Assembly: GCA_949152475.1 (NCBI GenBank)
Contig: OX424558.1
Location: 41,222,751-41,286,750 of the forward strand
Source: Terebella lapidaria
Taxonomy: Eukaryota; Annelida; Polychaeta; Terebellida; Terebellidae
DNA length: 64,000 nucleotides
Reading direction: 5' to 3'
Shown: in pieces, positions 16,201 to 25,200 of the stretch
How positions within the stretch are numbered: position 1 is the stretch's first letter
How the letters are laid out: every line of letters starts with the position of its first letter
Notes under the pieces: generated by a model
Told to the model about the DNA's origin: nothing
The model's database searches: none
What the model saw: only the letters and a program-made list of their open reading frames with translations
Made by a program: the position numbers and the translations under genes

Positions 16201-19200
16201 GAAGTTGGTTGCTATGGTGACAGTGTACTGCTGTCCAGGCGTGAGACCATTAAACGAATGCTCCAGTGTTCCTGTTCTCGTCACCGCTCTATAATATGTA
16301 CATGTGTAACTGATATTGTGTACTTTCCAGCTTCTACGTACATAGCTATTATTGAACAAACAGATGCTGCATTAACAACTACCACTCACAGTTACATCAT
16401 GTACCAAGTGTTTATATATACCTGGATATATGTATTTATCACTGACTGAACAAAAATCCGAGACTGTGATTGGTCAATCACATTGGTGATATAAACCCGT
16501 ATCCTGAATATCTAATTGGACACGCGCCATCTTCGATACAAGTTCCTGTATCCCTTGCGAGTCTCGTTTTCAGTCAGTGATAAATTCGTTACCCCATGTC
16601 CGTTCACGAAATACGGAATTATATCTACATCTAGCTGTCCGTATCCCATTCGGCCTTCGGAATCTTGGGATACGGACAGCTAGACGTAGATATAATTCCG
16701 TATTAAGTGAACAAACATGGGATAACTAATAGTATCTGCACACCATATAGTTACAATTATTATATGGTGCTAGTATGCCACACCCTGACATAGATTCACC
16801 CTGTCTGTGGATTATCTCCTGTCCTGGTCTCTGACATAGACTCACCCTGTCTGTGGATTATCTCCTGGCACAGTCTCTGACATAGACTCACCCTGTCTGT
16901 GGATTATCTCATGTCCCAGTCTCTGACATAAACTCACGCTGTTTGTGGATTATCTCATGTCCCAGTCACTGACATAGACTCACCCTGTCTGTGGATTATC
17001 TCATGTCCCAGTCTCTGACATAGACTCACGCTGTTTGTGGATTATCTCCTGTCCCAGCCTCTGACATAGACTCACCCTGTCTGTGGATTATCTCCTGGCC
17101 CAGTCTCTGACATAGACTCACCCTGTCTGTGGATTATCTCCTGTCCCAGTCTCTGACATAGACTCACCCTGTCTGTAGATTATCTCCTGGCCCAGTCTCT
17201 GACATAGACTCACCCTGTCTGTAGATTATCTCATGTCCCAGTCTCTGACATAGACTCACCATGTATGTGGATTATCTCCTGTCCCAGTCACTGACATAGA
17301 CTCACCCTGTCTGTGGATTATCTACTTCCCTGTCTCTGACATAGACTCACCCTGTCTGTGGATTATCTCCTGTCCCAGTCTCTGACATAGACTCACCCTG
17401 TCTGTGGATTATCTCCTTTCCCAGTCTCCGACATAGACTCACCCTGTCTGTGGATTATCTCCTGTCCCGGTCTCTGACATAAACTCACCCTGTCTGTGAA
17501 TTATCTCCTGTCCCGATCTCTGACATAGACTCACCCTGTCTGTGGATTATTTCCTGTCCCAGTCTCTGACATAGACTCACCCTGTCTGTGAATTATCTCC
17601 TGTCCCGGTCTCTGACATAGACTCACCCTCTCTGTGGATTATCTCCTGTCCCAGTCTCTGACATAGACTCACCCTGTCTATGGGATTATCTCCTGTCCTG
17701 GTCTCTGACATAGACTCACCCTTTCTGTGGATTATCTCCTGGCCCAGTCTCTGACATAGGCTCACCCTGTCTGTGGATTATCTCCTGTCCCAGTCTCTGA
17801 CATAGACGCACCCTGTCTGTGGATTATCTCCTGTCCCAGTCTCTGACATAGACTCACCCTGTCTGTGGATTATCTCCTGTCCCAGTCTCTGACATAGACT
17901 CACCCTGTCTGTAGATTATCTCCTGTCCCGGTCTCTGACATAGACTCACCCTGTTTGTGGATTATCTCCTGTCCCGGTCTCTGACACAGACTCACCTTGT
18001 CTGTGGATTATCTGATGTCCCAGTCTCTGACATAGACTCACGCTGTTTGTGGATTATCTCATGTCCCAGTCACTGACATAGACTCACCCTGTCTGTGGAT
18101 GATCTCCTGTCCCTGTCTCTGACATAGACTCACCCTGTCTGTGGATTATCTCCTTTCCCAGTCTCTGACATAGACTCACCCTGTCTGTGGATTATCTCCT
18201 GGAGCAGTCTCTGACATAGACTCACCCTGTCTGTAGATTACCTCATGTCCCAGTCTCTGACATAGACTCACCATGTATGTGGATTATCTCCTGTCCCAGT
18301 CACTGACATAGACTCACCCTGTCTGTGGATTATCTCCTGTCCCTGTCTCTGACATAGACTCACCCTGTCTGTGGATTATCTCCTGTCCCAGTCTCTGACA
18401 TAGACTCACCCTGTCTGTGGATTATCTCCTTTCCCAGTCTCTGACATAGACTCACCCTGTCTGTGGATTATCTCCTGTCCCGGTCTCTGACATAAACTCA
18501 CCCTGTCTGTGAATTATCTCCTGTCCCGGTCTCTGACATAGACTCACCCTGTCTGTGGATTATTTCCTGTCCCGGTCTCTGACATAGACTCACCCTGTCT
18601 GTGAATTATCTCCTGTCCCGGTCTCTGACATAGACTCACCCTCTCTGTGGATTATCTCCTGTCCCAGTCTCTGACATAGACTCACCCTGTCTATGGGATT
18701 ATCTCCTGTCCTGGTCTCTGACATAGACTCACCCTGTCTGTGCATTATCTCCTGGCCCAGTCTCTGACATAGACTCACCCTGTCTGTGGATTATCTCCTG
18801 TCCCAGTCTCTGACATAGACGCACCCTGTCTGTGGATTATCTCCTGTCCCAGTCTCTGACATAGACTCACCCTGTCTGTGGATTATCTCCTGTCCCAGTC
18901 TCTGACATAGACTCACCCTGTCTGTAGATTATCTCCTGTCCCGGTCTCTGACATAGACTCACCCTGTTTGTGGATTATCTCCTGTCCCGGTCTCTGACAC
19001 AGACTCACCTTGTCTGTGGATTATCTGATGTCCCAGTCTCTGACATAGACTCACCCTGTCTGTGGATTATCTCATGTCCCAGTCTCTGACATACTCACCC
19101 TGTCTGTGGATTATCTCATGTCCCAGTTTCTGACATAGACTCACCCTGTCTGTGGATTATCTCCTGTCCCTGTCAATGACATAGACTCACCATGGCTGTG

Positions 19201-22200: not shown

Positions 22201-25200
22201 TCTGTGGATTATCTCCTGTCCTGGTCTCTGACATAGACTCACCCTGTCTGTGGATTATCTCCTGTCCCGGTCTCTGATATAGACTCACCCTGTCTGTGGA
22301 TTATCTCCTGTCCCAGTCTCTGACATAGGCGCACCCTGTCTGTGGATTATCTGATGTCCCAGTCTCTGACATAGACTCACCCTGTCTGTGGATTATCTCC
22401 TGTCCCGGTCTCTGACGTAGACTCACCCTGTCTGTGGATTATCTCCTGTCCCAGTCTCTGACATAGACGCACCCTGTCTGTGGATTATCTCCTGTGCCGG
22501 TCTCTGACATAGACTCACCCTGTCTGTGGGATTATCTCCTGTCCCGGTCTCTGACATAGACTCACCCTGTCTGTGGATTATCTCCTGTCCCAGTCTCTGA
22601 CATAGACGCACCCTGTCCGTGGATTATCTCCTGTCCCGGTCTCTGACATAGACTCAGCCTGTCTGTGGATTATCTCCTGTCCCTGTCAATGACATAGACT
22701 CACCCTGTCTGTGGATTATCTCCTGTCCCAGTCTCAGACATAGACTCACCCTGCCTGTGGAGTATCTCCTGTCCTGGTCTCTGACATAGACGCACCCTGT
22801 CTGTGGATTATCTCCTGTCCCGGTCTCTGACATAGACTCACCCTGCCTGTGGAGTATCTCCTGTCCTGGTCTCTGACATAGACTCTCTCTGTCTGTGGAT
22901 TATCTCCTGTCCCAGTCTCTGACATAGACTCACCCTGTCTGTGGATTATCTCCTGTCCTGGTCTCTAACATAGACTCACCCTGTCTGTGGATTATCTCCT
23001 GTCCCGTTCTCTGACAGTTTGACCTCGTACATGGTGAAGTAACCAGTTGGGGCTGACCACTTGATCCTGACGCTGGTCCGTGTGACGACATTGGCAGTGG
23101 GTCGGCCGACAGATGGCGGCTCTGTGCAGATGACCACAACAACATAGACACTCCTCCTAGTCCTAGTTCACAAAATGTTCCCAAAAGCCGGAAACCTATG
23201 GCTGATGTCTAGACCCATATGACTTGGTGTATGATACCATACAATTCTGTATAATTTATTTATCACATCAACCCTCAGATATCTTACTTGTGCGTATGTT
23301 GGTGCCGTCAGACCGGGCGCTGGTTGTTGTCCCGTCCCCGGCCACCGCCACCAAGTACACGGTGTACAGCTGTCCTGGGGTGTCACCGGGGTACACCGTG
23401 GTAACAGTCACATCACAGGAGGACGTCACTCTAGTACATACAGACTTCACGGCAGAGGTAGAGCTTTTGTGGATGTACACAGTGTAGGTCACCTGTGATG
23501 ATAAACGTATCACCATCAGCATAAATGTCTGTTTCACACATGATGTAGATTGTGAGTGGATATGATTTGATGAAGGTTAAATTGAACTGCTGAATTCTTT
23601 TCAATAAATTTTAGGCAGTTGTGTACGAAATGTAATAAGTCGGAAAACTACTACAAAATTCACATTATATCGTTTCTAATTTCGGTTTCTATTGTTATCA
23701 AAATTTCTTTATCATTAAAATATCAATATCATATTGCACTAAAGAAATAATTCAGACGCTGCTCCAAACAGTGAAATATTTCACTCGTGAAACAGTGAAC
23801 ATCTGCTCCCGGCTGCTATATCTCACCCCGGAGACGGTGACTGGTGTCCAGGTCACACGCAGGGAGCTGGTGTCTGTGGCTGTGGCAGTGGGTGCATCTG
23901 GCTTGGAGGGTGCTGAAGGCAGATACAAGTATACTAATTCATGCCGAAACATATGCAGACCACTCGAGAAAACAATATTTCATGCCTCGAACTGAATCTT
24001 ACCGACATATTGATAACAAAACTCGTTGAATTTGTTGAATTATACAAATCGTATAATTGGTATATTGAACACACAACACAATCGAGCTTCCACTACGCGT
24101 GACCTCACATTCCATCTGTATACCTACCTGTGTATGCCGAGTCCGTCACGTTACCACTTCTCACAGTGGGCTGTCCGGCGACCTGGGCCCAGACATACAC
24201 AGTGTACTCTGTGGCCGGGTTCAGAGAGCCATACATCTTGGGGCTGGTCTCCACAGAGCCTGGTCCAGTGGCACCCAGTCTGGCCAGGTACACCACCCCA
24301 GCAGCGTTAGCCGGGGTGGTCGGGGTGGTCCAGGTCACCGTCAGGGAGGTGGTGTTGGATCCGGTAGCCGGCAGTGTGAGAACCACGTTCTCCGGAGCTC
24401 TGGGGTCTGTGGCGAGAAATAGCACAATACACTTTCATGTCCGAATGTGCAGCCTAGGTTTGTCTTCCTGTTAGTCAGTGACACGGCTCCAAGCGGTTTA
24501 TAATACAGTTATTATTAATGAAAAATTGCAGTTATTATTAACGAAAAAATACTACACAGTAGCTATTGTTTAGGAAATGTATGTTTTTTGTCATGGATTT
24601 ATATTTTTGCCAATGTAGTTGTACATAGAAAAAGTAGACGTTTTGTGTATCCTTGGCACATTGTTTTATTATTTCCTACCATTCAACGAAGAAAATACAT
24701 GAGTAAGAAAGGACCACGAACAAGACCACGTGAATATGACACTCAACAAGTAAAAATCATTTGAAAATAACCTTGGTCATTAAGATGAAACTTTTCAAAT
24801 TTGTATGTCATAAAAAGGAGATTGTCGTGTTTAAAATTATCTGACAAGAGAAGTGTTTTCTGATTTCACATTGGCCACAACTGAATCAAAACAAAACATA
24901 ATCATCCCAGAAGGTATTGTTGCCAATGAAGGAAAAATTAGATCGGAAATCATAATCATCTTGTAAGATTCGCGAGATGTTTTCATGGTATGTATGTTCC
25001 AACATTTGCAGGCACAACAGGAAACAATCACAGAAAGTTTTTCTGTGGAACAGTAACTGACTCACATAATTTCGATGTTAATACAAAATATACAAAAATA
25101 CCAAAATACACCCTCCCTCATTCCACCATTTTGTCGTACTGGTGTACACAGGACTGCTGGAGACCTCGTCACTCTGTACACTGCCATCTGCTGTGCCAGG

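What the first reader, a model, noticed from the sequence alone, without database searches (positions are those of the whole stretch)
16785..23121. A minisatellite of ~135 decoy 5' splice sites grown from an exon/intron boundary
The 46-bp unit equals the last 36-37 nt of FN3 exon 15 plus the first ten nt of its intron. In the gene's sense orientation almost every unit keeps CAGACAGG|GTGAGT, a strong U1-type donor. The true donor is the outermost one: joining it in phase 2 to exon 16 restores an FN3 domain. Read-through of the true donor meets TGA immediately, so using any inner donor would give a truncated product. The intron therefore holds over a hundred competing donors, and the splicing machinery must choose the first. 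It could act as a length-dependent regulator of isoform choice (truncated secreted FN3 ectodomain versus full receptor), as a U1 snRNP sponge, or be a tolerated accident.
Basis: partly seen in the sequence, partly recalled or inferred. Interest (0 to 1): 0.92.

Follow-up and report, generated by a model that had tools for sequence, protein, structure and literature searches.

The report
Giant repeat copied from splice junction
In a receptor gene of a spiralian animal, the junction where an exon meets its intron has been copied about 136 times in a row, leaving some 135 look-alike cut sites beside the real one; sister genes carry 6 to 36 copies, which points to a tolerated growth rather than a switch and makes a natural test of how cells choose the right cut site.

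Summary
On the minus strand, window 16785-23016 is a 46-bp array whose unit is the last 37 nt of an FN3 exon plus 9 intron nt: one true donor and 135 inner ones, 132 keeping GT and 123 GTGAGT. Only the outermost restores the FN3 frame; read-through meets TGA at once. The genome adds more. Three paralogues carry the array at the same boundary with 6, 23 and 36 donors, the same 142-nt exon, and coding sequence under purifying selection. Donor motifs are the best-kept part of the window's array but eroded in two paralogues. It probably began as a 46-bp duplication between TGTCAG copies, before the gene duplications. Four other genes (RASSF5-like, GT21-like, laminin N, kinase) have such donor arrays. 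The kind is known from amphioxus as 'mirages'; a Lox5 gene with KLTGP marks this genome as spiralian, and 136 copies far exceed the 3 and 6 I saw in print. Most likely the array is passive: donors are chosen first come, first served, within exon-size limits. Regulation is weakly hinted at in one array, unsupported in the others, and untested; there are no RNA data.

The parts
22980..23121 (-). FN3 exon 15 (142 nt), first half of an FN3 domain; its last 37 nt (22980-23016) are the exonic copy of the repeat unit
   Evidence: boundaries, frame; PF00041 for the spliced peptide; exonic unit
22974..22982 (-). true 5' splice site AGG|GTGAGT (intron begins at 22979)
   Evidence: 5' end of the two U1 genes read in this genome is ATACTTACCTG
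16785..22979 (-). intronic part of the 46-bp minisatellite, 135 inner donor positions, running from the true donor into the intron
20176..22010 (-). higher-order duplication inside the array: units 22-35 against units 48-61 (lag 26), 14 consecutive units with at most 1 difference
17351..19054 (-). higher-order duplication inside the array: units 87-92 and 94-101 against units 109-114 and 116-123 (lag 22), each with at most 1 difference
16434..16730 (.). insert-like inverted repeats between array and exon 16 (arms 16584-16648/16666-16730; 16434-16450/16569-16585); by eye no counterpart in paralogues A and B
16143..16288 (-). exon 16 (146 nt), second half of the FN3 domain, acceptor TATTATAG|AGCGGTG
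7060..7266 (-). open frame with a protein-tyrosine phosphatase domain on the same strand, downstream; taken as part of the same receptor gene (inferred, no transcript)
   Evidence: ORF; PF00102, 3.7e-18

Best explanation
A 'mirage'-type minisatellite grown by slippage or unequal exchange from an exon/donor boundary and passively tolerated. Origin (inferred): exon and intron each carried TGTCAG 46 nt apart; a microhomology-bounded tandem duplication of that 46 bp made the first extra donor, and later unit-level and block-level (22- and 26-unit) duplications made about 136. It predates the duplications of the gene (inferred from shared position and unit variation). Tolerance (inferred): the donor transcribed first is committed first, and only the first few donors (4 within a 300-nt exon, 8 within 500 nt) can pair with the exon's single acceptor in exon definition, so most inner donors are out of range; rare use of an inner donor gives an immediate stop and probably NMD. 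Selection keeps the exon and its donor; the array side drifts. Shown here: anatomy, frame, four paralogues, donor erosion in A and B, block duplications, exon constraint. Not shown: any splicing event.
For: Unit = 37 exonic + 9 intronic nt, and the outermost donor in frame. Same boundary, same 142-nt exon and immediate TGA in 4 of 4 paralogues, with 6, 23, 36 and 136 donor positions. dN/dS of exons 15+16 is 0.22-0.52 in 6 of 6 pairs. TGTCAG at the distal end in W and C, a near match in B; A lacks it. Mean unit distance within W (0.085) equals W-A (0.085), so variation predates that duplication. Inner GTGAGT 13 of 22 in A and 15 of 35 in B. The true donor is not stronger (109 of 135 inner sites at least equal) and not more accessible (rank 134 and 135 of 136 in two settings), so position is what is left. 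In human reporter libraries with two consensus 5' sites the first was predominantly used, and no such order effect was seen for 3' sites (PMC6783452, passages). [quoted passage not shown]
Against: In the window's own array GTGAGT is the best-preserved 6-nt window of the unit (rank 1 of 46; nominal permutation P 0.07 as first aligned; 0.03 with the gaps placed correctly), and B keeps GT in 35 of 35 inner donors, so a pull to keep donors is not excluded. In W the inner donors nearest the exon are damaged more often (6 of 15 against 6 of 120, P 0.0004; distinct units P 0.005; nearest 6, P 0.09), which hints that near decoys do compete. The cut-offs were post hoc; A shows no such effect, B leans the other way (2 of 8 against 18 of 27, P 0.05), and C keeps 5 of 5. 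The donor-order rule is from human cells. No RNA.
Confidence: 0.78

Rival explanations
1. Length-dependent splicing rheostat: inner donors near the exon capture a fraction of transcripts, which stop at once and are degraded, so array length sets receptor dose.
For: Of the 4 donors within a 300-nt exon, those with U1 pairing at least equal to the true one (true one included) number 3 in W, 2 in A, 4 in B, 4 in C. GTGAGT is best kept in the longest array, and its near decoys are damaged more often.
Against: Beyond about 8 units extra copies should add little under exon definition (inference); donors erode in A and B; the near-decoy effect is absent in A and C and reversed in B; no expression data.
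Confidence: 0.12
2. U1 snRNP sponge, or U1 shield against premature polyadenylation.
For: 109 of 135 inner sites pair with U1 at least as well as the true donor; the U1 5' end read here is the canonical one.
Against: A pre-mRNA of one receptor gene is unlikely to titrate an abundant snRNP (general knowledge). No AATAAA/ATTAAA occurs in the sense intron of W, A or B to be shielded; C has two, outside its array. Three paralogues do with 5, 22 and 35 inner donors.
Confidence: 0.03
3. The array is an assembly artefact or over-expanded by the assembler.
For: One assembly only, unnamed, read technology unknown.
Against: 76 distinct unit sequences among 134 full units, block copies that are not all identical, and arrays at the same place in three paralogues. 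The exact count may still be wrong.
Confidence: 0.05

Closest known systems
Amphioxus 'mirages' (Adh3, globin BflGb6/BflGb9, TnC; PGBD5 likened to them)
   Same: Minisatellite-like tandem duplication of an exon/intron boundary, many but not all repeats keeping splice signals, boundary units left out of homogenisation, regular splicing apparently unaffected (PMC3087553 and PMC3902484, passages).
   Different: Described there as possibly general in cephalochordates; this genome has a Lox5-type gene with KLTGP, so it is spiralian. BflGb6 has 6 and 3 units in its two haplotypes; here 136 donor positions, plus 6, 23 and 36 in paralogues. Both donor and acceptor sides are known in amphioxus; only donor-side arrays were confirmed here.
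Human internal tandem repeats at exon-intron boundaries in segmental duplications
   Same: Boundary minisatellites varying between recent paralogues (PMC2812944, passages).
   Different: On average 30-bp units repeated 4 times, with novel introns and often an alternative transcript; here one boundary, over 100 copies, no novel intron seen.
Tandem 5' splice site competition (first come-first served)
   Same: More than one equal donor at one exon end (PMC6783452, passages).
   Different: Designed two-site reporters in human K562 cells; here a natural series with 5, 22, 35 and 135 inner sites.

Membership tests
mirage (exon/intron-boundary minisatellite) | tandem unit spans a real exon/intron boundary | tested here: met
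   37 exonic + 9 intronic nt; outer donor joined to exon 16 gives an FN3 domain, read-through a stop. Exon status is predicted, not seen in RNA
mirage (exon/intron-boundary minisatellite) | many, not all, repeats keep the splice signal | tested here: met
   inner GTGAGT: W 123 of 135, A 13 of 22, B 15 of 35, C 5 of 5
mirage (exon/intron-boundary minisatellite) | boundary unit excluded from homogenisation | tested here: met
   37-nt exonic unit identical to 0 of 134 (W), 0 of 22 (A), 1 of 35 (B), 0 of 5 (C) full units of its own array; the far-end unit was not tested
mirage (exon/intron-boundary minisatellite) | copy number unstable | tested here: inconclusive
   6, 23, 36 and 136 donor positions among paralogues; no second haplotype or individual available
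mirage (exon/intron-boundary minisatellite) | does not disturb regular splicing | not testable with these tools
   no RNA data
mirage (exon/intron-boundary minisatellite) | reported lineage: cephalochordates | tested here: not met
   Lox5-type homeodomain followed by KLTGP at C14:6074579; that KLTGP marks spiralian Lox5 is recalled. Lineage is where mirages were reported, not part of their anatomy

The most novel reading that the evidence does not exclude
Spiralian genomes carry a whole class of donor-side boundary arrays, and their length acts as a heritable dose control: decoys inside the exon-definition range leak a share of transcripts into NMD, selection prunes the near decoys, and far decoys accumulate freely.
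Probability: 0.13. Interest if true: 0.88.

Novelty: new variant of a known kind. Interest (0 to 1): 0.6.

Why it matters
How the spliceosome picks one of several equal donors had given conflicting evidence, and the test I could read used two sites at a time in reporters (PMC6783452, passages). Here nature supplies the same exon and acceptor with 5, 22, 35 and 135 inner donors, many of them pairing with U1 as well as the true one, no accessibility advantage for the true site, and a stop codon that would expose a mistake. One long-read RNA data set from the species would measure the error rate against number and distance of decoys. It would also show whether boundary minisatellites are common outside amphioxus and feed intron growth.

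Tried and rejected
Rejected: amphioxus as the source, my first guess from the mirage literature; the Lox5/KLTGP locus speaks against it. Rejected: RNA structure hiding the inner donors; in two window settings the true donor ranks 134 and 135 of 136 in W, 22 and 23 of 23 in A, 28 and 36 of 36 in B, 5 and 5 of 6 in C. Rejected: a gradient of unit divergence from the exon; no correlation in W, A or B (Spearman P 0.59, 0.43, 0.14). Not upheld as general: pruning of near decoys, seen in W only. Weak: acceptor-like sites within the arrays have at most 7 of 12 upstream pyrimidines.

Genome-wide controls. Triples of CAGGTGAGT spaced 15-45 nt: 75 matches in 8 arrays, backward control 0. CAGGTAAGT: 76 matches in 4 arrays, control 43 matches, which a separate search resolves to 5 places, 3 of them one related sequence by eye. 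The mixed pattern CAGGTRAGT has 181 matches against 43, so about 30 mixed triples are only partly listed and 12 arrays is a lower bound. AAGGTRAGT: 103 against 77; flanks not read. Acceptor-like TTTYNCAGG: 106 against 215, no excess. Counts are matches and are dominated by a few long arrays. Of the 12 arrays I read a sense 5' flank for all 12: 4 start at an exon with a family or structure match; 1 at an FN3-like exon below Pfam's cut-off; 2 at an open frame without a match (C3:1742494, C7:1200256); 5 are negative or unresolved (C1:42397768 stops in all three frames close to the donor; C4:1395964 only short open frames; C7:3775373 short open frame, unverified; C11:38406983 array start not reached; C16:3063308 frame stays open through the repeat, may be coding). 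Flanks of control arrays were not read.

Literature: Canestro 2002, the original mirage paper, is not held and is known to me only through citing passages. Searches for boundary minisatellites elsewhere gave no paper, 3 papers and 21 of which 12 were listed; by title only the human repeat paper (passages) and the amphioxus globin paper looked relevant. The library holds open-licence PMC papers only.

This makes the evidence against my reading slightly stronger, so I lowered it from 0.80 to 0.78 and raised the rheostat rival from 0.10 to 0.12 and the novel case from 0.12 to 0.13.
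Full report
What is there. The gene lies on the minus strand. Open frames along this strand read as FN3 domains (by eye; PF00041 E 5.2e-11 for the spliced exon 15/16 peptide) and further on as a tyrosine phosphatase domain (PF00102, 3.7e-18), so I take it as an FN3-rich receptor-type PTP; no transcript shows this. 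Behind the FN3 exon at 22980-23121 stands a 46-bp minisatellite that fills 22979-16785. The sense unit is GTGAGTCTATGTCAGAGACCGGGACAGGAGATAATCCACAGACAGG. Its last 37 nt are the end of the exon, its first 9 the start of the intron. There are 136 donor positions: the true one and 135 inner ones, of which 132 keep GT and 123 keep GTGAGT. Pairing with the U1 5' end (ATACTTACCTG in both U1 genes read, of 22 found over the cut-off) is at least as good as at the true donor in 109 of 135. The outermost donor joined to exon 16 (16288-16143) keeps the frame; read-through gives GGG TGA.

Paralogues. The window is C4:41222751-41286750 of a 761.6-Mb genome. Three further genes on C4 carry the same array at the same boundary. 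Donor positions including the true one: window W 136, A 23, B 36, C 6. Exon 15 is 142 nt in 4 of 4, the acceptors are alike, the first donor is GTGAGT in 4 of 4, and read-through gives TGA at once in 4 of 4; introns are 6691, 1220, 1826 and 929 nt. dN/dS over exons 15+16 is 0.22-0.52 in 6 of 6 pairs: the exons are under purifying selection while donor numbers differ more than twenty-fold.

Origin. At the distal end the repeat breaks off after TGTCAG in W and C and after a near match in B; A lacks it. The exonic unit starts with TGTCAG in 4 of 4, 46 nt upstream of the intronic one. The simplest reading is one duplication bounded by this 6-nt repeat. Mean unit distance within W (0.085) equals that between W and A (0.085), so a variegated array was probably there before those genes split. 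Later growth was partly in blocks: unit identity peaks at lags of 22 and 26 units, with a run of 14 near-identical units at lag 26. The exonic unit is identical to 0 of 134, 0 of 22, 1 of 35 and 0 of 5 full units of its own array in W, A, B and C, so it is largely kept out of homogenisation.

Are the decoys kept? In W the GTGAGT window is the best preserved of 46 (0.918 against a median of 0.776; nominal column permutation P 0.03; 0.07 before a gap-placement correction). In A and B it ranks 36 and 37 of 46, with inner GTGAGT in 13 of 22 and 15 of 35, though B keeps GT in 35 of 35; C keeps 5 of 5. In W inner donors nearest the exon are damaged more often (6 of 15 against 6 of 120, P 0.0004; distinct units P 0.005; with the nearest 6, 8 or 10, P 0.09, 0.002, 0.006); A shows no such effect (P 0.18 to 1) and B leans the other way (2 of 8 against 18 of 27, P 0.05). 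The cut-offs were chosen after seeing the data, and units are not independent. Taken together there is no consistent sign across the four arrays that decoys are maintained or pruned; the hint is confined to W.

How the true donor is found. It is not stronger and not more accessible in predicted RNA structure (rank 134 and 135 of 136 in W; also low in A, B and C). Position remains. In human K562 libraries with two consensus 5' sites the first was predominantly used, while tandem 3' sites showed no order effect (PMC6783452, passages). With a 300-nt limit on exon size only 4 donors could pair with the exon's acceptor, with 500 nt 8 in W, A and B and 6 in C; the limits are general knowledge. Acceptor-like sites inside the array are poor, so inner units cannot easily become exons. 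This makes the array a tolerated passenger. That step is inferred; no RNA was available.

Not alone in this genome. Searching for three CAGGTGAGT or three CAGGTAAGT motifs spaced 15-45 nt gives 8 and 4 arrays; mixed triples are only partly listed, so 12 is a lower bound. The backward control of the first gives no match, that of the second 43 matches in 5 places. I read a sense 5' flank of all 12. Four begin at the end of an exon supported by homology: RASSF5-like (3ddc, E 7.5e-9), glycosyltransferase 21 (2.8e-16), laminin N-terminal (2e-19) and protein kinase (3.6e-12; all). One begins at an FN3-like exon below Pfam's cut-off (20.7 against 25 bits), two at open frames without a match, five are negative or unresolved. 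Exon ends here are read from open frame plus donor, not from RNA. An acceptor-type pattern shows no excess over its control (106 against 215), in line with a donor-only order rule but weak, since matches, not arrays, are counted and the motifs are not equally specific.

What it is called. Tandem duplications of exon/intron boundaries were named 'mirages' in amphioxus (PMC3087553, PMC3902484, passages). This array meets the anatomical features. The genome is not amphioxus: a Lox5-type homeobox is followed by KLTGP, which I recall as the spiralian Lox5 signature. In the passages I could read, unit numbers were 6 and 3 (BflGb6), and human boundary repeats average 4 units (PMC2812944, passages). 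My searches for boundary minisatellites in other animals showed no further case, within an open-licence library and, a list of 12 of 21. I therefore call it a new variant of a known kind: the same kind of structure, in another branch of animals, over twenty times the unit counts I saw, and in a natural series of four.

Noticed in passing
G000:C3:37890200-37891000 (L077): In the glycosyltransferase-21-like gene the exon's own donor reads GTGAGC while many inner copies read GTGAGT, so the outermost donor looks weaker than its copies; likewise in paralogue C two of five inner donors are AAG|GTGAGT with slightly better U1 pairing than the true one.
   Followed up: partly
G000:C1:63436151-63452200: 19 of the 22 listed U1 snRNA gene matches lie in one cluster with equal scores, mostly 821 bp apart.
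   Followed up: no
window 583-1635, 26217-26892, 57538-57851: A 134-bp satellite-like repeat occurs in several places and, at 26370-26892, its consensus carries AGGTCAAAGGTCA, which resembles a DR1 nuclear receptor site (recalled).
   Followed up: no
window 55651-57222 (-): A 524-aa open frame with a reverse transcriptase domain (PF00078, 2.1e-7), a retroelement relic or member.
   Followed up: no
window 16434-16730; L014 (C4:41543700-41553600): Two different insert-like sequences lie between array and exon 16 in W and in C, none seen in A and B, so this short intron stretch seems to have taken insertions independently (by eye; inverted repeats in W).
   Followed up: partly
G000:C4:41142517-41599403: Frames matching the exon 15/16 FN3 peptide recur over about 460 kb on C4, suggesting a cluster of related receptor genes.
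   Followed up: no
G000:C3:37839937-37845388, C17:26028991-26030325, C9:267629-267943 and others: Tandem arrays with AAGGTRAGT motifs lie at about 15 further places in the first 100 of 103 matches; their flanks were not read and the backward control also has 77 matches.
   Followed up: no
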